Assembly (NCBI GenBank): GCA_024516035.1
Contig: CM044967.1
Span: 4,210,859 to 4,274,858, forward strand
Origin: Bactericera cockerelli
Taxonomy: Eukaryota; Arthropoda; Insecta; Hemiptera; Triozidae
Reading direction: 5' to 3'
DNA: 64,000 nt
A program made the translations under genes and the position numbers. Positions 1,239-62,398 of the stretch are shown here, piece by piece. The notes beneath the pieces were generated by a model. It searched no databases. It saw only the letters and a program-made list of their open reading frames with translations, and was not told the origin of the DNA. The stretch's first letter is position 1. Every line of letters starts with the position of its first letter.

Positions 1239-1536
1239 GTTACTTCTTCCTTATACATACTTACCAAAGTTATGATCATCGTAAATATAGATACCTACTT
1301 ACCTATGGCCTATGTTACTTCTTCTTTCTACATACTTACCAAAGTTATGATAATCGTAAGTATAAATACCTACTTACCTATGGCCTCTGTTACTTCTTCC
1401 TCAGACATATACTTACCGAAGTTATGATCATCGTAAGTATAAATACCTACTTACCTATGGCCTCTGTTACTTCTTCCTTAGACATACTTACCAAAGTTAT
1501 GATAATCGTAAGTATAAATACCTACTTACCAATGGT
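1239..1536 (+). repeat. Minisatellite, about 75-bp unit x 4
   Basis: Units begin GTTACTTCTTCC at 1239, 1314, 1389 and 1466 (periods 75, 75, 77). Each contains ACTTACCAAAGTTATGAT and TACCTACTTACC. The units are nearly identical, so the array is young. A frame stays open through part of it but has no coding signature. Confidence 0.9.
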
Positions 1537-28109: not shown

Positions 28110-28380
28110 ACTTATGTAAAAGGACTCAGTATTGTTTTAAGAAATGTGTCGTTTCTTTTATCGTTTGGCTTATTACACATCTCAAAGTAAGCAATAAATT
28201 TGATCAGGAAATCTGATGGCAGTGATTGTCTGATCCCAAAATTGTCAGTACTTTAGCCGCATGTCAATGCGTTGCCCAGGGTGAACCACGAGGAGGCGTA
28301 CTAACATTTCACCCCATGTGTTGGTATATTGTTATTAAGTATTTTGGTATATTATTTTATAAAATGTGTTGGTATATTGG

Positions 28381-53491: not shown

Positions 53492-56400
53492 GTATGTAAC
53501 CTTGCAGACTATAATAATAATTCCGCGTGTCCGTGAGGTAGGTATTGATACCTAAATCACGGTGGTGAGAGGATTATATGGACGCCCAGATCCAATATCT
53601 AGACTCCTTTCATGTCCATTGATTCTATTTGGTTTTAACGTCCTGACTTGAGGTAGACAGGACGGGGGTTTTACCCTCCATTCGCTGGGAATCGTACCAG
53701 CTACCCAAATTAACCTCACCCAGCCTGGGTAAGGTTGGAATTGCCAGCCTCACATGTTCGGAGGGAACAGAATGTTCTGTGTGAAAAGTCTGCTCCAACC
53801 GGGAATCGAACTCAGGATCTCTGGACTACGGACAGTAGTCACAAGCGTTACGCCACGGAGGCTGACGTACGATACCTTGCAGACGATTTTCCTATAATGT
53901 GTACTCAGCAAAAGCTCAATCGGTTTAATCTATGAGAGCTAGTATTAAATTTTTATGTATTTCTAGCCTAGAAGAATTTTCTGATCCAAACGGACCTATG
54001 TGCAAAATATGTGCAGGCGACATAAAATCTGCATTTTATTTCAAACAGATACTTGCTATGGCCGTCCAAAGAGGCAATGCGGCGGCCATACTTGGCACAT
54101 TGGCTCAAGGACTCGATGAGGCTTTTGTACTATGATTTAGCAACAAACTTATGTACTATTACATAATAATCTGATTTATTTTCAGGACTGACCCTAACCA
54201 TCCTAATTCTGTGTCAACTGCCGTCCTATCAGACTGAAAAAGTACAAGTAAGTAGAATCATATTGATGTTATGTTTTGAGGTTTAGGACGTCATTAATAG
54301 ACGTTTTTGTTTATACCTCTGTGGAGCTAAGTCTAGATATTGCGTATTGCCTAAGATGGGGAAAATTAATGCTAATTCATGACTTATGATCTCGATTTTT
54401 TCTATTCATAATCGCCCTTAAAGTCTTTTTCAGGTGCCAAGTTGATATCAATACGAGGGTTTTACCCTCTATTTGCTTGAAACTTCAACTAAAGTAGGAT
54501 AGAGAGTATAGAGACCATCACTCCCCTAGCTGTGGTCAAGCTGGCTACAACAACAACAACAACAACAACGACAGTATCATAGTATATAAGGGCTGGGTGG
54601 AAAAGATTGCCACAGGCAATAACCCCGCCTTTTAGGTAGGACATTAGCTTTATTCACTTTTTTGTTCCTGTTTCTTTGTTCAATTTATTTATTATTTTCT
54701 ATAAATTCATTGTATTGTACTGTAAATTTATTGTATTTGTGTTGTACTGTTTTTCATACCAATATCTATATTAATTACTTTTTCTACTTTTGATATTACT
54801 TTTTAACATTATTTTATTTTAATATTTGTATTTATTGACATTTTTATTGTTGACATTGTAAATAGGGCTATTCCCGTAAATATACTCCCGTACACCGGGT
54901 ATTTATTAAATAAAAAATAAATATTGTACTTTATCGTTACCTAATAGAGAGTTATTTGATAATAATAATAATAATATAATTTCCCCCAAAAAACTCACCG
55001 TGTTACAGAAATCGAGCGCCAAAGTCAGCGCAGTCCCGAGCAGGAGGATAGTCCCTCTCTCCTCGAGTGATATACTCGCAGCACAACTACTCAAAGAACC
55101 GTTCCCTCAGTTTGATGCCACCAAACTGAAGAGGACCGTCCGGAAACTGGACAACGATGAAAGCGGTGACTCTTTGGATGCTGTCAATCCAGACGAGTAC
55201 CAAGGTAAGTGGAGTACTGAACGGAGTGCTCTCAATCCAGACGAGTACCAAGGTAAGTGGAGTACTGAACTGAGTGCTGTCAATCCAGACGAGTACCAAG
55301 GTAAGTGGAGTACTGCACGGAGTGCTCTCAATCCAGACGAGTACCAAGGTAAGTGGAGTACTGAACTGAGTGCTGTCAATCCAGACGAGTACCAAGGTAA
55401 GTGGAGTACTGAACGGAGTGCTCTCAATCCAGACGAGTACCAAGGTAAGTGGAGTACTGAACTGAGTGCTGTCAATCCAGACGAGTACCAAGGTAAGTGG
55501 AGTACTGCACGGAGTGCTCTCAATCCAGACGAGTACCAAGGTAAGTGGAGTACTGAACTGAGTGCTGTCAATCCAGACGAGTACCAAGGTAAGTGGAGTA
55601 CTGAACTGAGTGCTGTCAATCCAGACGAGTACCAAGGTAAGTGGAGTACTGCACGGAGTGCTCTCAATCCAGACGAGTACCAAGGTAAGTGGAGTACTGA
55701 ACTGAGTGCTGTCAATCCAGACGAGTACCAAGGTAAGTGGAGTACTGAACTGAGTGCTGTCAATCCAGACGAGTACCAAGGTAAGTGGAGTACTGCACGG
55801 AGTGCTCTCAATCCAGACGAGTACCAAGGTAAGTGGAGTACTGAACTGAGTGCTGTCAATCCAGACGAGTACCAAGGTAAGTGGAGTACTGCACGGAGTG
55901 CTCTCAATCCAGACGAGTACCAAGGTAAGTGGAGTACTGAACTGAGTGCTGTCAATCCAGACGAGTACCAAGGTAAGTGGAGTACTGAACTGAGTGCTGT
56001 CAATCCAGACGAGTACCAAGGTAAGTGGAGTACTGAACTGAGTGCTGTCAATCCAGACGAGTACCAAGGTAAGTGGAGTACTGCACGGAGTGCTCTCAAT
56101 CCAGACGAGTACCAAGGTAATAATAAAATAATGATAATATCGTCTTATTTGAGGAGCGTGCGTGCAAAAATGAACATCTCCGGAAATATGAATTTTCAGT
56201 CATTATAATCAGCATAAAGAGGAAAGTGAGAAGTTGTATTAGATGTACGAGGTTTGGCTATTAAGTTCGTAGATTCTTCCCATAAAACGATGTGTGTTTA
56301 ACTTACCCAACTTTAGTAGCTATCCCCTTCAATGTACTCCCCTCCTCTATCCCTATAGCGTTCTAAGCAAATTTTCCATTGTTCGAAAGAGTGGTGGAGG

Positions 56401-59400
56401 TCATTTTGTGTGAGGCCTTCCAAGACTTTTGCCGGTTTTTTCTTAACGGCATCTACGCTGTCAAATATGGTACCTTTCAGGGCAGATTTGATTTTTGGGA
56501 ATAAGTTAAAGTCGCACGGGGCCAGGCCGGGTGAGTAAGGAGGTTGTTCCAACACTGGGATGTTGTACTTGGCCAGGAACATCTTCACGGAGAAGGCACT
56601 GTGGGCTGGCACATGGCACCATTTTTGGGCAAACTTTTGTCATGTTGAAATTTTCGTGCAAAATTTGTCTCACACATTCTTTATCAATTTTAAGTGTATC
56701 AGCCATTAGTGTAAGAGGTAACCTACGGTCAGAACGAATCATAACACAATTTTTTTCAATGTTTTCGTCAATTTTTGAGGTTTGGGGGCGACCAGGACGT
56801 GGATCGTCCTCAACATCTTCCTGACCATCTTGAAACCGTTTAAACCATTTATAAAGCGTTGATCTTTTCAAACATGACTCCTGGTAAACTGTCTTTAAAA
56901 AAGAAAAAGTTTCACCAGCAAGTTTTACGTAAAATTCAATAATCACTCGTTGCTCAACGTTTGTATCAATCAAAAATCCGGCAAAATTAAAAAAGATGTC
57001 TTGCGCGTCGGGCTGTCGCAATAGAACTAATTACAGTACAGGCGTGTGACAGCTATGAATCAAAACACAAGACTTGAAGCTGTCTAAATATGTTTATCAT
57101 ATCTTCCTAGCTTGGACAGCTTTTGCGTAGCGGCTCGCGTCTACGAATTTAATAGCCAGACCTCGTACATTGTACATGAATATCAGAACATACCTGGACA
57201 GCTGTTTCGAGCTTATTTGCTCTCATCAGCAGGTAATAGTTCTGAATATCCATGCAATCAACTAACCTCTCTTTTTTAATCAGCATAAATTAAGGAAAAA
57301 CTGATATTATGAAAAGTAAAAAAATATAGAAACAAGTATGAATCTGTTCAGATTTGATTCATAGGTACTGTCGTTTTGAAAGCACGATTACTATGAGATG
57401 TGTTCGAGTAAGGTCGTTTATTGTTTAATTTTTGAATTCCGCTCAGTATAAACTGTTAGAATCAATTCCTAACTCCATTTTTTGTATTTTTGGAAATGTT
57501 CATTTTTGCACGTATGCTCCTCATTCATACTGCCCGATTAAGACTATTATAGTCCCATTATTCCAGCAGTAAGCCCAAGACATATTATTATTATGTGGTA
57601 AAAATCCCAAATAGGAGTATAACTTGTCATGTCCCGCCGGGTTTCGAACCCGCGACCACTGGAATCTCTGGATTCACAGAGTGCCGCCTTTACCACTGAG
57701 CTACCGGGACAACCTACTTCTTTATCAAATTAATGAATTTTCATTAATGTTATTCTCTTAATGTCTTCCAGGAGTTGTTGGTCGTCCGGGGATAGACTTC
57801 CCAGTCCTCTCCACTATTCCTGTCACCAAGTTCAGCTGTCGCCAATACAAGAGCCCGGGTTACTACGCTGATTTGGACACCAACTGTCAAGTGAGTTTTG
57901 AAATCGCGGATAGACCTCACTGAGCCAACCTCCGTGGCTCAGCGGTTAAGAGTATTGGTTGCTGACCCGGAGGTTGCGGGTTCGAATCCCGGCCGGAGCG
58001 GAAAATTTTAACCGAGTTTTTCCGTTTCCAGAATGGCATGGATGTAAACGTAAAGTGCCCTGAAGTAATGTGAAAACGGTTCCTGGGCACAACTACCCTT
58101 TTTTTTCTTCTTTTTTTTTTAAAAAAAAAGACCTCCTAGCTATTAATTTTTGGTTGTTTTTTTTTCCTTCACAAATTAAAAGTTTCGTGTTAATTTAAAA
58201 ACTCCAAGTTTCGTATAATACTTCTGAGTTTTAAGTAGGTATTCATTTTTGCGCAGTCATTTTTATTTAATTAAAATTTCATCATTTAATTACCTATCAC
58301 AAAGTTTAGTCATTTCAGAATATTATATTTAAGAGGCACATCTAGAGAGAGCCAAAATAATCTGTTTCGATATAGCAAAAAAGTTATCTTATTTGTGTTA
58401 ATCAAAATCGTGATATCACAACTACTCAAACTCTAACAAACGCTTTACTAAATCTACGCTGAAACCAGGACTTGAACTACCGACCCTCCGATTACAAGTC
58501 CACCGAATTATCGATCAAGCTACTGAGGTCAGTATCTGTTTTGATGAGAAATTCAAGACCAGAACCGTTCTGAATACTTGAGTTTTCCTTGTGCTCTGAT
58601 CTCAAATCTACCGATGCAAAGGAATCCTCAGTTTAAACTTGTCTGAATTTTCAATTTTAATGATAAAAATCTTTTGGTTTTTTCCAGGTATTCCACATAT
58701 GTGATGGCGGTCGGAAAATATCATTTCTATGTCCAAATGGTACCATTTTTCGGCAGTCCCACTTGATATGTGACTGGTGGTTCAGGGTAGATTGCAGTAA
58801 TTCGGTAAATTTGTACGAAGAAAGTGCCGAACAATTGGCCATAGATCAACAGGCCTACAAATTAAAATCAAAAACACAGGAAAATGTAAATCAAAAGGAA
58901 AATAATTTCCAAGAAAATTATAAAATTACTCCGACATCAAATTCTTTTCAACAAGCTCAAGAAGTTCCCCAAGACACGTATACCTCGAAAGCTAAGGCTT
59001 CAGGAAATCAGCCTTTGCAACAAAACACATTTACATATCAAGCAAATCAAAATCAAAAACCTTTCGCTGGTAACAATCAAAAGCAGTATCCAGAAGTAGT
59101 TACGCCTTCTCCAAGCACATTTTACGCACCGCAAAACCGATTCCAAGCGAATCCTTACAACTCGGACTCACGCAGCTTGGTGAATGAAAATTTATCTGGA
59201 AACTCAATAAATTCAAGACAACAGAATGTCCATAATAATGTAGCTTCTCAATCGAAGAATTACAATCCTTCCAATGCTAAAATATACTCTGGAGGAAATA
59301 GTCTGGACAGCGAGAGCCAAGTTTTGGCTGAATCTGTAAACTATGGAGCTAGCAAACAAAATCGATACAACCCTGATAATTATTACAGTATTGACGGAAC

Positions 59401-62398
59401 GCAAAAACAATATACTCCTTACCAACAAAGTTCAGTATACACACAAAATAAATATCAGCCAAGCGCAATTAATCAACAAATTAATCACAACTCTCAGAGT
59501 AATTTAAATCAGAAAGCTGTCTACTCTCAACCTTCAACTATTCAACCACCCAACAACTACTCTCCAAGTTCCACAGCTCAGCAGAGTTCAACCTTTGCTC
59601 AGAGTTCAACGATTCAACCAAATAACATCAACCTTCAACCATCAACTATTCAACAAACTAGTAACTATGCTCAAAGCACTACTGTTGAACAACCTAGAAA
59701 CTACCCTCAAACAAATAATTTCCAACAAAATACCAACTATCCTCAGAGCACCACACTCCAACAAAATACCAACTACCCTCAAACTACAAATCAACAAAAC
59801 ACTAACTACCCTCAAACTACAAATCAGCAAAACACTAACTACCCTCAAACTACAAATCAGCAAAATACCAACTACCCTCAAACCACAGTTCAACAAAATA
59901 CCAACTACCCGCAAAGCACCACACTCCAACAAAACACAAACTACCCTCAAACTACAGTTCAGCAAAACACCAACTACCCTCAAAGCACCACAATTCAACA
60001 GAATACAAACTACCCTCAAAGTACTACTGGGCAACAAGGTGGCAGTTATTCTCAACCATCAACAGTCCAGCAAACTACTTTTTACCAACAAAATAGCCCA
60101 CAAAGTACCACTTATCAACCAGAAACTACTTATCAACAAGGAACATCGGCTGACCTTTTACGTTCCCAAAACATTTCATCCTATTATCCATCGTCTTATT
60201 CGACTTTGAATTATCCTTCGACCAACTATGTCTCTTACACAACTCCTTCTTATCAAGAAACTTCAACTCCCGTTTATTCCACCATTAGAGAATCTACCCC
60301 TGCATACTCAACGTATACAACTCTTAAAGACGCCTATCCTTCAACTTTTTCATACAATCCTAGCACAGTATACTCAACTTTTTCGTCAAGTCCTACGACA
60401 AGCCCTGAGTTGCTTTCCACATTAAACTTTAATCGAGCCAGTCAGGAGAAATCCAATTTGGTACCTGAATCAATCAATAATGTCGCCGATGAAAACTCTA
60501 GTAGAGATGCTGTGAATCTATTGGACTCCATCTCAATTTATTATGATCAAATTAATAACAAAGAGTCTGTCCGACTACCTATCAGTAATCAGGATACAAA
60601 AAATAAAATATCAGTATCTGATATTTTTCTAAATCAAGAAAGTCATGTACCTTTATCGCCGGCTTCGTTTGATTTGTCCAATGCCTTGCCGTCTGTGCTA
60701 ACGGATTCTACAAAAGAAGGATACACTTACTTGTTTTCCAATGGAAGTCGAGATGATAGCTTAAACAAAGAAAATGATCAAACAATTCAGGAGTTTCCTC
60801 GGAATGAGAATGATTTAGCTACTCAGCAGAACCAAGGTATCTTCCAGTCGTCCTATTCCACTGTGTCTACCACTACAACTACTCAGAGTCCTAAAGTTAC
60901 AGAATCCCAAAAGGATTTAGAACTCCGACATTCCTCTGATTTGCGAGAACTGGCCCAAGTGTTCAGCCGTGCATTGTCGGCTTACTTGGAAGATCCTGAA
61001 AACTTCAGAAGAATTTTATCTGAAGTTCGACCGACTGAGCCAAATATTAAATCAACCACCGCCAATCCTCACCAAAATGAAGTACTCGAATTTTCTGAAG
61101 ACATCAAGTTTTCTCCTCCTAGAAATCCCTCCAGCACACCGACTGCGTACACCACAGTAAGAGATGCCTTCAGGGCGTCAAGCATAGCGAATCAAGTGAA
61201 CAATCTTGTGACAGACAATTCCTATTTCCCTGCACCAAAAAATCTCTATGGTGGATTCCAGAACAATACTTTCTCTTACCCATCCTCACCAAATATTGTT
61301 GAAGGAACAACTCAGACATATTTTTCTGTCTCTCCCCTGGTAGATGTTACTCGTGAACCAAAAGTTTACAGATATAACTCTCCTACAACTCCCATACCAG
61401 TGACTACTTACACATATGACGAGAGAAACTCGAATGCTATCGGAGCCCAAGACGTAAATAACCTTGTTCCTAGAAGAAACCAATATGAAGATGAAACCTA
61501 TGATAAAAACAACGTTTTTAGTAGTGATAAGTACGATTATAGTTTTGGAGCCAACGCAAAGAAAACTACGCAACAGTATACTGATACAGATGATCTTGAA
61601 TCTCTTGTACCGTACGATAGTCAGTCCATTGTATCCAGAGATAACTTACTCCGATTCCAAGATGCTCAGCAGAAGTACTATTCGACTTTCAAGTATGGAC
61701 CGGTAGAAAACTTTTCGAAGCCACCAGAAACGTACCAGTCTCCAACAGTATTCCAAAGCACGCCATCAGTAACTCCAACCTATTTCTACAACGAGAGAGT
61801 CTCGTCACAAAGCATCCCCTCATCCACTTACAGTTCCGTCAACTTTGTACCAACAGAATCAACTCCCTTCTTACAATCCAGCAGCCCCTTCGTTCAGAAC
61901 CAATTTGTACCTCAAACAATTAATAATAGTTCAATGTATCAAGAAGCCAAAGAACTATTTGGGAACTTGAATGAGACCAGTGCAAACATTCTAATGCACA
62001 TGATGCACGAGGCTGAGTCAAACTCCACGTTGAGAAGACTAGTCCTGCTGCTAGTGAATGACAAAACGGGAAAGAAAACACCCGAAGAATCGAGGAATAA
62101 GCTACTGGAAGCTTTGTTGCAGATGCCGCAGCGTGTACCAAGCTATCCTCCAAACTCAATCAGTCGGACGCCACATACCAAAGTAGCGAGACGGGTGAAA
62201 GTAGTCAAAGGTAGAATGCTGCCGAATAATGAAAGAAGCTCAACCAAGTACAACAGAGACGTGAAGGCAGAGGAAGCAAAGCCTGCGAACAATCCCCAAT
62301 CGGAATCTCTTCTACCTGAGAAACTTTCTTCAGAATCGGACACAAGAGCTGTTGAACTATTGAAATCTCTCTATGTCCTAGCCGCCAAATGGGGCTAG
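53461..62398 (+). CDS. Secreted single-domain chitin-binding protein (CPAP1 class), spliced, 1372 aa
   Basis: Predicted extracellular cuticle protein. CPAP1 proteins carry one peritrophin-type domain that binds chitin and supports cuticle integrity. Join of 53461-53491, 54186-54247, 55009-55204, 57772-57890 and 58688-62398 (4119 nt; phases 1,0,1,0 all agree). Residues 1-31 hold a signal peptide core (TILISGLTLTILILC). Residues 32-118 are a linker with basic KRTVRK and the GVVGRPGIDFP motif. Residues 119-172 are the ChtBD2/CBM14 domain with all six cysteines (C-x15-C-x5-C-x9-C-x12-C-x7-C), GYYADLDTNCQVFHIC, SFLCPNGTIF and CDWW. About 185-880 is Q/N/S/T/Y-rich, with nine NTNYPQ repeats at about 482-583. 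Residues 887-921 (DLRELAQVFSRALSAYLED) and 1234-1284 (LRRLVLLLVNDKTG) look like conserved helices. The end is ELLKSLYVLAAKWG. The length assumes use of the first donor of the 48-bp array; later donors add 16 residues each. An acceptor at 53439 implies an upstream 5' UTR exon that I could not locate. Confidence 0.88.
53509..53863 (-). mobile_element. SINE family S3 with alternative 3' module (S3c), in intron 1
   Basis: Minus strand: S3 head (CAGCCTCCGTGGCGTAACG), box B GAGTTCGATTCCCGG and body to GAGGGTAAAACCCCCGTCC. It then switches to TCTACCTCAAGTCAGGACG, CACCGTGATTTAGGTATC and (AAT)n instead of the GAA-tail module. It begins 17 bp after the segment 1 donor. Confidence 0.78.
53969..54135 (+). 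CDS. Orphan coding-like frame inside intron 1
   Basis: After TTTCTAG (a possible acceptor ending 53968) an open frame reads EEFSDPNGPMCKICAGDIKS, AFYFKQILAMAVQRGN and AAAILGTLAQGLDEAFVL, then TGA at 54133-54135. Composition is protein-like (paired CxxC, amphipathic A/L helix) and unlike neighbouring noise frames. It cannot be an internal CPAP1 exon because it ends in a stop. It could be an alternative terminal exon, a retrocopied piece of another gene or a nested gene end. I do not recognise the family. Confidence 0.35.
54186..54247 (+). CDS. CPAP1 coding segment 2 (signal peptide core)
   Basis: Acceptor TTATTTTCAG|GA, donor GTACAA|GTAAGT. Adds LTLTILILCQLPSYQTEKVQ, the hydrophobic core and the likely signal-peptidase region. 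Begins in phase 1 and ends in phase 0. Confidence 0.85.
54286..54417. mobile_element. TTA-flanked MITE (PIF/Harbinger-like), 132 bp, in intron 2
   Basis: TTA at 54283-54285 and 54418-54420. Ends GGACGTCATTAATAGACG and CTATTCATAATCGCCC. The interior ACCTCTGTGG.GCTAAGTC is shared with 5979-6107. It is more diverged in its termini than that copy. Confidence 0.7.
54515..54567 (-). repeat. Dispersed repeat end with (AAC)n, in intron 2
   Basis: Minus strand GTTGTTGTAGCCAGCTTGAC then CACAGCTAGGGGAGTGATGG, matching 52389-52460 and 1663-1720. Confidence 0.65.
54589..54976 (+). mobile_element. LT retroelement 3' tail, long copy, in intron 2
   Basis: GGGCTGGGTGGAAAAGATTG, hairpin TTGCC-ACA-GGCAA, CCCCGCCTTTTAGGTAGGAC, about 300 bp of T-rich UTR, CCTAATAGAGAG and (AAT)n. 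Its end lies about 30 bp upstream of the exon 3 acceptor, so part of the branch-point region may be transposon-derived. Confidence 0.75.
55009..55204 (+). CDS. CPAP1 coding segment 3 (shortest form)
   Basis: Acceptor CACCGTGTTACAG. Encodes KSSAKVSAVPSRRIVP through LDAVNPDEYQ plus one base of the next Gly codon (phase 1). The first donor is CCAAG|GTAAGT at 55205. Nineteen more equivalent donors follow at 48-bp steps to 56117. The downstream join gives YQ-G-VVGRPGIDFP. Confidence 0.82.
55179..56116 (+). repeat. 48-bp minisatellite spanning the exon 3 splice donor (19.5 units)
   Basis: Each unit is about 22 bp of intron start (GTAAGTGGAGTACTGAAC plus GGAG) and 26 bp of exon end (TGCTGTCAATCCAG, ACGAGTACCAAG). 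Donors fall at 55205 + 48k for k = 0 to 19. The first 19 are AAG|GTAAGT and the last is AAG|GTAATA. The unit is a multiple of three with no in-frame stop and reads GKWSTE(L/R)SA(V/L)NPDEYQ, so every donor leaves phase 1. Three unit variants (TGAACTG..CTGT, TGCACGG..CTCT, TGAACGG..CTCT) are arranged non-randomly, with a four-unit block repeated at the 5' end. Long minus-strand frames here are artefacts. Confidence 0.95.
56248..57165 (-). mobile_element. Internally deleted mariner element, 918 bp
   Basis: Flanked by TA (56246-56247, 57166-57167). Terminal inverted repeats begin CGAGGTTTGGCTATTAAGTT and, inverted, CGAGGTCTGGCTATTAAATT. It carries remnants of a mariner transposase on the minus strand. 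It sits in intron 3 of the CPAP1 gene. Confidence 0.9.
56313..57021 (-). pseudogene. Mariner transposase, deleted and frame-broken
   Basis: The N-terminal piece (57021 to about 56620) has the paired helix-turn-helix region with the linker DDPRPGRP. The C-terminal piece (56612-56313) has PAHSAF, PPYSPGLAPCDFNLFP and a helical end. The segment between KMVP and PAHS, which should hold the first catalytic Asp and the HDN-type second Asp, is deleted. Only the final Asp (PCDF) of the DD34D triad remains. The two parts are in different frames. It cannot be catalytically active. Confidence 0.88.
57525..57710 (-). mobile_element. SINE family S4, full length, in intron 3
   Basis: CATACTGCCCGATTAAGACT tail side, TAAAAATCCCAAATAGGAG, box B GGGTTCGAAACCC and head GTCCCGGTAGCTCAGTGG with intact acceptor-like stem. 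It ends 61 bp before exon 4. Confidence 0.88.
57772..57890 (+). CDS. CPAP1 coding segment 4 (first half of chitin-binding domain)
   Basis: Acceptor ATGTCTTCCAG|GA, donor TGTCAA|GTGAGT. Encodes GVVGRPGIDFPVLSTIPVTK and FSCRQYKSPGYYADLDTNCQ with cysteines 1 and 2. The aromatic pair YY before AD is typical of the chitin-contacting region. Ends in phase 0. Confidence 0.92.
57924..58110 (+). mobile_element. SINE family S5, in intron 4
   Basis: GCCAACCTCCGTGGCTCAGC, GGGTTCGAATCCCGGCCGG (box B), then CCGAGTTTTTCCGTTTCCAG, AAGTAATGTGAAAACGG and a T/A-rich end. It starts 33 bp after the exon 4 donor. A relative of the box-B/body part is near 62710-62765. Confidence 0.72.
58385..58535 (-). mobile_element. 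SINE family S2, in intron 4
   Basis: TTAATCAAAATCGTGATATC (inverse tail), CTTTACTAAATCTACGCTG, box-B region GTTCAAGTCCTGG and head GACCTCAGTAGCTTGATCG. A small CTAACAAACG insertion lies in the body. Confidence 0.83.
58688..62398 (+). CDS. CPAP1 coding segment 5 (rest of domain, long Q/N-rich region, C-terminus)
   Basis: Acceptor GGTTTTTTCCAG. It opens with VFHICDGGRKISFLCPNGT (cysteines 3 and 4), then CDWWFRVDC (5 and 6), and runs uninterrupted for 1236 residues to TAG 62396-62398. An exon this large and intronless is unusual beside the four tiny preceding segments. The tandem QQNTNYPQTT units (59723-60030) are nearly identical at DNA level, so copy number is probably variable. After about residue 185, cysteine is essentially absent, consistent with a disordered, tyrosine-bearing extracellular tail. 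The overlapping frames 59595-60209 and 59642-60055 are shadows of the CAA-rich repeats. Confidence 0.93.
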   Translation, partial: VFHICDGGRKISFLCPNGTIFRQSHLICDWWFRVDCSNSVNLYEESAEQLAIDQQAYKLKSKTQENVNQKENNFQENYKITPTSNSFQQAQEVPQDTYTSKAKASGNQPLQQNTFTYQANQNQKPFAGNNQKQYPEVVTPSPSTFYAPQNRFQANPYNSDSRSLVNENLSGNSINSRQQNVHNNVASQSKNYNPSNAKIYSGGNSLDSESQVLAESVNYGASKQNRYNPDNYYSIDGTQKQYTPYQQSSVYTQNKYQPSAINQQINHNSQSNLNQKAVYSQPSTIQPPNNYSPSSTAQQSSTFAQSSTIQPNNINLQPSTIQQTSNYAQSTTVEQPRNYPQTNNFQQNTNYPQSTTLQQNTNYPQTTNQQNTNYPQTTNQQNTNYPQTTNQQNTNYPQTTVQQNTNYPQSTTLQQNTNYPQTTVQQNTNYPQSTTIQQNTNYPQSTTGQQGGSYSQPSTVQQTTFYQQNSPQSTTYQPETTYQQGTSADLLRSQNISSYYPSSYSTLNYPSTNYVSYTTPSYQETSTPVYSTIRESTPAYSTYTTLKDAYPSTFSYNPSTVYSTFSSSPTTSPELLSTLNFNRASQEKSNLVPESINNVADENSSRDAVNLLDSISIYYDQINNKESVRLPISNQDTKNKISVSDIFLNQESHVPLSPASFDLSNALPSVLTDSTKEGYTYLFSNGSRDDSLNKENDQTIQEFPRNENDLATQQNQGIFQSSYSTVSTTTTTQSPKVTESQKDLELRHSSDLRELAQVFSRALSAYLEDPENFRRILSEVRPTEPNIKSTTANPHQNEVLEFSEDIKFSPPRNPSSTPTAYTTVRDAFRASSIANQVNNLVTDNSYFPAPKNLYGGFQNNTFSYPSSPNIVEGTTQTYFSVSPLVDVTREPKVYRYNSPTTPIPVTTYTYDERNSNAIGAQDVNNLVPRRNQYEDETYDKNNVFSSDKYDYSFGANAKKTTQQYTDTDDLESLVPYDSQSIVSRDNLLRFQDAQQKYYSTFKYGPVENFSKPPETYQSPTVFQSTPSVTPTYFYNERVSSQSIPSSTYSSVNFVPTESTPFLQSSSPFVQNQFVPQTINNSSMYQEAKELFGNLNETSANILMHMMHEAESNSTLRRLVLLLVNDKTGKKTPEESRNKLLEALLQMPQRVPSYPPNSISRTPHTKVARRVKVVKGRMLPNNERSSTKYNRDVKAEEAKPANNPQSESLLPEKLSSESDTRAVELLKSLYVLAAKWG
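59723..60030 (+). repeat. Coding minisatellite, 33-36-bp units, nine NTNYPQ copies
   Basis: Units such as CAACAAAATACCAACTACCC plus CTCAAACTACA encode QQNTNYPQTTN or QQNTNYPQSTTL. Changes among units are mostly synonymous or in the spacer residues N/V/L/I. Confidence 0.9.

What the first reader, a model, noticed from the sequence alone, without database searches (positions are those of the whole stretch)
55179..56116. A ladder of 20 in-phase splice donors created by amplification of an exon/intron boundary
The sequence shows a 48-bp tandem repeat whose unit straddles the true 5' splice site of CPAP1 exon 3: 26 bp of exon end and 22 bp of intron start. Each copy regenerates AAG|GTAAGT (the last AAG|GTAATA). 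Because 48 is divisible by three and the unit has no stop in frame, all donors leave phase 1 and join exon 4 as ...EYQ-G-VVGRPG. Inference: one gene can make up to 20 length isoforms (1372 + 16k residues, maximum 1676) differing in copies of a W-containing unit placed just before the chitin-binding domain. If so, a minisatellite has converted intron into potential coding sequence while multiplying the splice site. I know of no described case with this many identical competing donors.
Basis: partly seen in the sequence, partly recalled or inferred. Interest (0 to 1): 0.88.

Follow-up and report, generated by a model that had tools for sequence, protein, structure and literature searches.

The report
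Splice-donor minisatellite, one of many
A psyllid gene carries a tandem repeat whose every copy rebuilds the signal that marks the end of an exon; the same happens at many other genes of this genome, so it is probably hidden intron growth rather than a 20-protein switch, and it offers a natural test of how cells choose among identical splice sites.

Summary
In detail: 55179-56120 holds 19.6 copies of a 48-bp unit straddling an exon/intron boundary, with 20 donors in phase (19 AAG|GTAAGT, the last AAG|GTAATA). The gene encodes an insect chitin-binding protein; the predicted Cacopsylla ortholog lacks the repeat. The 20-isoform reading is not supported. Whole-genome searches show a class: ladders of three AGGTAAGT give 2799 matches (reversed control 178), AGGTGAGT 5928 (651); a donor-killing mutant gives 375 (132), acceptor words 78 (71) and 77 (23), the weaker donor GTATGT 681 (353). 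Of 23 arrays that I read on C1, 15 begin at what looks like an exon 3' end (AREL1-like HECT, X11/Mint PDZ, RING, LRP among them). In 12 of those 15 only the first donor keeps the frame, so the first donor probably does the work and the rest is intron. Human ABCA7 is a partial parallel (one extra unit in about 2% of steady-state transcripts), and ABCA7 and CBS refute 'no described case'. Best reading: the donor at 55205 dominates; the in-phase ladder is a one-in-five accident. New here: the scale, and the bias to strong donors. No RNA data were available.

The parts
55009..55204 (+). exon 3 (to the first donor); acceptor TTACAG just upstream
   Evidence: ORF and alignment to Cacopsylla ortholog P0001, 63% over 71 aa
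55179..56120 (+). 48-bp minisatellite straddling the exon 3 donor, 19.6 copies
   Evidence: TRF; 20 donors listed
55205..55210 (+). first (upstream-most) donor GTAAGT; predicted main donor
   Evidence: sequence; inference from frames of other arrays and ABCA7 precedent
56117..56122 (+). last donor GTAATA, weaker; likely the original donor (inference)
   Evidence: array extent 19x48+30; a similar pattern (last copy GTAAAT) in L054
57772..57890 (+). exon 4, GVVGRPGIDFPVLS...; start of chitin-binding domain
   Evidence: CBM_14 E 4e-13 over exons 4-5
58688..62398 (+). exon 5, end of chitin-binding domain and long low-complexity tail

Best explanation
The array is one of what I extrapolate to be several hundred 'donor-straddling minisatellites' in this psyllid genome. 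A short tandem duplication spanning the end of an exon and the first few intron bases copies the 5' splice site with it; because each copy regenerates AG|GTRAGT, the upstream-most donor still ends the exon at the old place and everything after it becomes intron. The duplication is therefore nearly silent and can grow by unequal exchange. The same accident inside an exon, and often at an acceptor, would change the mRNA and be lost. In this gene the donor at 55205 is predicted to be the main one, with donor 2 (16 extra residues) at a low level; the all-in-phase frame is incidental. Shown: the anatomy, the genome-wide class, its bias to strong donors over acceptors, and the frame constraint. Inferred: first-donor use, near-neutrality, the route of birth.
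For: Genome-wide ladders (three copies, gaps 10-40), matches v reversed-pattern control: AGGTAAGT 2799 v 178; AGGTGAGT 5928 v 651; CAGGTAAGT 558 v 6; AGGTRAGT with period 45-53 2168 v 201. Comparison words: AGGAAAGT 375 v 132; acceptor words TTTGCAGG 77 v 23 and TTTTNCAGG 78 v 71. 15 of 23 arrays read on C1 start at an apparent exon 3' end; outside support for AREL1-like HECT, X11/Mint PDZ, RING and LRP. In 12 of 15 only the first donor is in phase and open, e.g. 1 of 57 in AREL1. In human ABCA7 the canonical product uses the first of many donors and one extra unit is seen at 2 +/- 1%.
Against: No RNA evidence from this species. ABCA7's 2% is a steady-state value: its frameshifted products are subject to NMD and rose substantially with cycloheximide, so use of the second donor may be higher than 2% there. 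Competing identical donors often resolve to the intron-proximal one in model transcripts (recalled, no call). In 3 of 15 other arrays (L040, L046, L052) more than one donor is in phase and open. GTATGT ladders are weakly enriched (681 v 353), so 'any donor' is too broad. Of 23 arrays 5 were not at a visible exon end and 3 were ambiguous. [quoted passage not shown] Neutrality alone does not explain why donors exceed other positions.
Confidence: 0.7

Rival explanations
1. One reading: the donors compete and one gene makes a ladder of up to 20 length isoforms with 0-19 copies of a 16-residue unit before the chitin-binding domain.
For: All 20 donors in phase and open; similar open ladders exist in L046 (X11, 4 of 4) and partly in L040 (5 of 11) and L052 (2 of 4). 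In an in-phase array no NMD would remove longer products.
Against: Unit length is not biased to multiples of 3 (4 of 15); open frame expected about 1 in 5 by chance; in ABCA7 only use of the second donor was reported, about 2% at steady state; the predicted ortholog lacks the repeat. Three non-synonymous differences of three are uninformative (108 of 144 possible changes are non-synonymous, 28 synonymous, 8 stops).
Confidence: 0.15
2. Intron-proximal choice: the last strong donor (56069) or the last donor (56117) is used, so the array is a coding repeat of about 300 residues.
For: Frame open throughout; proximal preference in duplicated-donor constructs (recalled); the last donor is probably the original one.
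Against: Would extend exon 3 to about 1.1 kb; the same rule would break the reading frame at 12 of the 15 other exon-end arrays, AREL1, LRP and RING among them.
Confidence: 0.12
3. Assembly artefact: copies inflated or collapsed by the assembler.
For: Not testable without reads; copy number is assembly-derived.
Against: Three unit types in a non-trivial order; many unrelated arrays of different periods.
Confidence: 0.03
4. Not exclusive of the above: donors are a true mutational hotspot (splicing- or transcription-linked), not just a refuge where duplications survive.
For: Distinct arrays on C1: AGGTAAGT 7 in 8.05 Mb and AGGTGAGT 5 in 5.1 Mb v AGGAAAGT 5 in 65.4 Mb, more than tenfold per Mb.
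Against: Selection plus GC-rich exon ends as minisatellite seeds could give the same pattern; GTATGT shows 10 arrays in 65.4 Mb of C1, little above the mutant word.
Confidence: 0.3

Closest known systems
Human ABCA7 intron 18 VNTR (25 bp; PMC5954066, abstract and passages seen)
   Same: Array begins at the exon's own donor GT; 12 to about 427 units; first donor is the canonical one; one extra unit seen at 2 +/- 1% (steady state)
   Different: Unit described as intronic, 25 bp and so not in phase; single locus; longer arrays go with lower expression and more skipping of the next exon
Human CBS 31-bp VNTR c.1444_1467+7(16_21) (PMC2630376 and PMC1395315, passages seen; Lievers 2001 not held)
   Same: Unit straddles exon 13/intron 13 (24 exon + 7 intron bases by its name); 16-21 copies of constant period with point variants
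   Different: 31 bp, so not in phase; single locus; associated with reduced CBS activity by the title of Lievers 2001 as cited
Intron gain by tandem genomic duplication (PMC4974935; search listing and abstract start only)
   Same: Tandem duplication reproduces splice signals
   Different: There a new intron arises; here an existing donor is multiplied
Thawb (thw)-like insect chitin-binding proteins, CPAP1 type (family name CPAP1 recalled; homologs)
   Same: One CBM_14 domain, GRPGIDFP lead-in, long low-complexity tail
   Different: No repeat in the two psyllid homologs read

Membership tests
Donor-straddling VNTR (ABCA7/CBS type) | tandem unit contains the host exon's own 5' splice site | tested here: met
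   exon end placed by predicted ortholog
Donor-straddling VNTR (ABCA7/CBS type) | many units, each with a donor | tested here: met
   20 donors
Donor-straddling VNTR (ABCA7/CBS type) | variable copy number between individuals | not testable with these tools
   one assembly only
Donor-straddling VNTR (ABCA7/CBS type) | upstream-most donor is the one mainly used | not testable with these tools
   no RNA data; indirect support from frames of 15 other arrays
Isoform-generating tandem donors | more than one donor used in transcripts | not testable with these tools
   no RNA data
Insect chitin-binding protein (thawb/CPAP1 type) | single peritrophin-A (CBM_14) domain | tested here: met
   one stretch, E 4e-13, in the 155 residues scanned from exons 3-5; homologs. 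The rest of exon 5 was not scanned.
Coding tandem repeat | array translated in the mature protein | tested here: inconclusive
   frame open; the protein search could not see full-length candidates

The most novel reading that the evidence does not exclude
In this psyllid lineage strong 5' splice sites are hot spots for minisatellite birth through a splicing- or transcription-linked process; several hundred genes now carry ladders of identical donors whose copy number tunes splicing, next-exon skipping or expression, and in the in-phase minority (this gene, X11) also protein length.
Probability: 0.25. Interest if true: 0.9.

Novelty: new variant of a known kind. Interest (0 to 1): 0.72.

Why it matters
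Which of several identical 5' splice sites a cell chooses has been studied mainly with constructs and a few human loci (recalled). A genome with many natural ladders (3 to 57 donors in the exon-end arrays read here, periods 22-51 bp, in and out of frame) would let ordinary RNA-seq answer it at scale. The bias to donors also suggests a rule for where minisatellites can survive at exon edges, and one route by which introns lengthen at their 5' ends.

Tried and rejected
Search for a database protein containing the repeat: none at E <= 10 among 7997 scored candidates, but the query was a 673-aa cut, which by the tool's length rule leaves out full-length proteins; I count it as uninformative. Source of the 18 unexplained unit bases: none in the window at 15 of 18 or better. 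Papers: nine searches, several with capped listings; in the titles listed I recognised only ABCA7 and CBS as donor-straddling repeats, and no genome-wide report. PMC12203342, on psyllid genomes, has no 'tandem' or 'minisatellite' in its main text (term search). A third donor word, GTATGT, was weak (681 v 353); of 4 such arrays fetched, 3 chosen because the unit looked coding, 2 (L063; L064 on C2, cadherin-like by eye) were at apparent exon ends and 2 were not. A GC-donor control (AGGCAAGT) did not complete. Domain scans of exon peptides: of 10 exon-end arrays scanned 3 passed a Pfam cut-off (X11, RING, LRP); AREL1, without a Pfam match, was recognised by a structure-sequence search; L048 found nothing there; L040, L044, L045 and L060 were not scanned.

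After the self-check I lowered the best explanation from 0.72 to 0.70 and raised the isoform model from 0.13 to 0.15, because one search is uninformative and ABCA7's 2% is after NMD.

Full report
WHAT IS THERE. The window is an insect sequence; the assembly (565 Mb, 1032 contigs; window = C13:4210859-4274858) is held without a name. The best homolog of the gene is from the psyllid Cacopsylla melanoneura (taxonomy), so I take the species to be a psyllid (inference). The scanned 155 residues of exons 3-5 hold one CBM_14 domain, and homologs carry names such as thawb, thw or mucin-like in the 120 of 354 matches listed. Exon 3 ends ...DAVNPDEYQ|G; the Cacopsylla ortholog reads ...DAVKTEEYQ-GVAGRPG with nothing between. 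That protein is a database prediction; I have no transcript.

THE ARRAY. 55179-56120 is 19.6 copies of a 48-bp unit with 20 donors spaced by exactly 48. Every donor gives an open frame with exons 4 and 5. Nineteen donors are GTAAGT and the last is GTAATA. The periodic stretch is 19 x 48 + 30 bases, so it is bounded by 26 exon bases on the left and GTAA on the right; I infer that GTAATA is the original donor, that 26 exon bases plus GTAA were duplicated with 18 added bases of unknown source, and that the join GTAA+GT made a stronger donor. The L052/L054 array looks similar: inner donors GTAAGT, last GTAAAT.

THE CLASS. Ladders of three words with gaps of 10-40 bases were counted in the whole genome, each with the tool's reversed-pattern control: AGGTAAGT 2799 v 178, AGGTGAGT 5928 v 651, CAGGTAAGT 558 v 6, and AGGTRAGT with period 45-53 2168 v 201. 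Comparison words: AGGAAAGT, one base from a donor, 375 v 132; acceptor words TTTGCAGG 77 v 23 and TTTTNCAGG 78 v 71. A weaker donor word, AGGTATGT, gave 681 v 353, so the effect is strong for GTAAGT and GTGAGT and weak for GTATGT. The comparison words are themselves enriched 1.1 to 3.3-fold over their reversals, against 9 to 93-fold for the strong donor words. Matches are not independent, since long arrays count many times, and the tool calls its repeat counts lower bounds. In distinct arrays on C1: AGGTAAGT 7 in the first 8.05 Mb, AGGTGAGT 5 in the first 5.1 Mb (both listings capped), AGGAAAGT 5, AGGTATGT 10 and both acceptor words 0 in all 65.4 Mb (listings). Extrapolated, about 490 (95% interval 198-1012) and 554 (180-1293) arrays genome-wide for the two strong words, of which at exon ends about 211 (43-615) and 554 (180-1293). 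This is rough: it assumes that C1's first megabases are typical, and the capped listings end at a match. The acceptor words probably cover a smaller share of acceptors than the donor words do of donors (my estimate, no call), so the contrast is less than the raw counts suggest.

ARE THEY AT REAL EXON ENDS? I fetched and read 23 arrays on C1: the 7 AGGTAAGT and 5 AGGTGAGT arrays listed, 3 of the 4 further ones in the listing (the fourth, C1:9168560, has the unit of L042/L043 and was not fetched), and the 8 further ones in the listing. Fifteen of 23 have their first donor at the 3' end of an open reading frame with an acceptor-like site upstream: C1:2167714, L040, L041, L044, L045, L046, L047, L048, L051, L052, L053, L055, L059, L060, L061. 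L044 and L045 share one unit and near-identical flanks, so 14 are independent. In L055 the first donor is separated from the rest of the array by 219 bases. Four exons have outside support: AREL1-like HECT (E 2e-5), X11/Mint PDZ (E 2e-31), RING and LDL-receptor repeat. The others rest on ORF and acceptor read by eye; seven of them were scanned and gave no family above its cut-off (L041, L047, L048, L051, L052, L053, L055), and four were not scanned. Three (L056-L058, one unit at three loci, beyond a stop codon) are ambiguous; five (L009, L039, L042, L043, L062) show no exon end. Where the first unit is regular, the run shared with the exon end is 7-46 bases allowing one mismatch (not measurable that way for L041 and L055), and at least the first 4-6 intron bases are included (by eye).

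FRAME TEST. For these 15 arrays I read on from the exon frame (frames chosen by eye, those of L040, L044 and L045 the likeliest of two). In 12 of 15 only the first donor is in phase and before a stop: AREL1 1 of 57, L041 1 of 14, L044 1 of 24, and so on, counting donors in the fetched stretch. Exceptions are L040 (5 of 11), L046 (4 of 4) and L052 (2 of 4). Units that are multiples of 3 are 4 of 15; one third is expected (p 0.79). So there is no sign that arrays are kept for coding, and genes such as AREL1 and LRP should not tolerate frequent use of later donors. The window's open ladder has a prior chance of about 0.19-0.22.

HOW IT WORKS. I conclude that the upstream-most donor is mainly used and the remainder of the array is intron. 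The nearest experimental parallel is human ABCA7: the VNTR begins at the exon 18 donor, alleles run from 12 to about 427 units, and the one extra-donor product reported is retention of a single unit, at 2 +/- 1% (PMC5954066, passages). That figure is after NMD, which cycloheximide showed to matter. There, longer arrays went with lower expression and more skipping of the next exon, a testable prediction for the psyllid. CBS gives the anatomical parallel, c.1444_1467+7 with 16-21 copies over exon 13/intron 13. The donor/acceptor difference fits selection: a copied donor leaves the mRNA unchanged if the first one is used. It is not a law, since the CBS 844ins68 duplication of an intron 7/exon 8 junction is also spliced to normal mRNA. 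Nor does survival alone explain an excess over random positions; GC-rich exon ends as seeds, or a real hotspot at strong donors, remain open.

VERDICT. Observation confirmed; ladder-of-isoforms reading weakened but not excluded; novelty claim for the single locus refuted by human cases; the genome-wide class at strong donors is the new and stronger finding. My nine paper searches (some listings capped, open-licence papers only) turned up no report of it.

Noticed in passing
G000 C1, whole genome: Many unrelated minisatellites share only a strong 5' splice site word; 15 of 23 read start at apparent exon ends.
   Followed up: yes
window 1239-1535: Another array (period 75, 3.9 copies) carries ACTTACCT, the reverse complement of AGGTAAGT; no exon noticed beside it.
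   Followed up: partly
window 59648-60020: Coding minisatellite in exon 5 (QQNTNYPQTT repeats).
   Followed up: no
window 56245-57180, strand -: Transposase-like fragments resembling mariner (by eye, recalled) inside the intron after the array.
   Followed up: no
window 28246-28315, strand -: Rfam match to an HDV-like ribozyme (45.5 bits, cutoff 44).
   Followed up: no
window 57629-57711 and 57930-57998: tRNA-like stretches, perhaps SINEs, beside exon 4.
   Followed up: no
L061/L062 (C1:45461062 and C1:45467096): The LRP donor array has a second block of the same unit about 6 kb downstream with no exon seen.
   Followed up: no
L042, L043, C1:9168560: A 9+13-bp AGGTAAGT array with shared unit at several loci, possibly part of a mobile element.
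   Followed up: no
L048 (C1:5100920): Units of two lengths share the same end at intron position +6 but start at different exon positions, hinting at repeated independent duplications.
   Followed up: no
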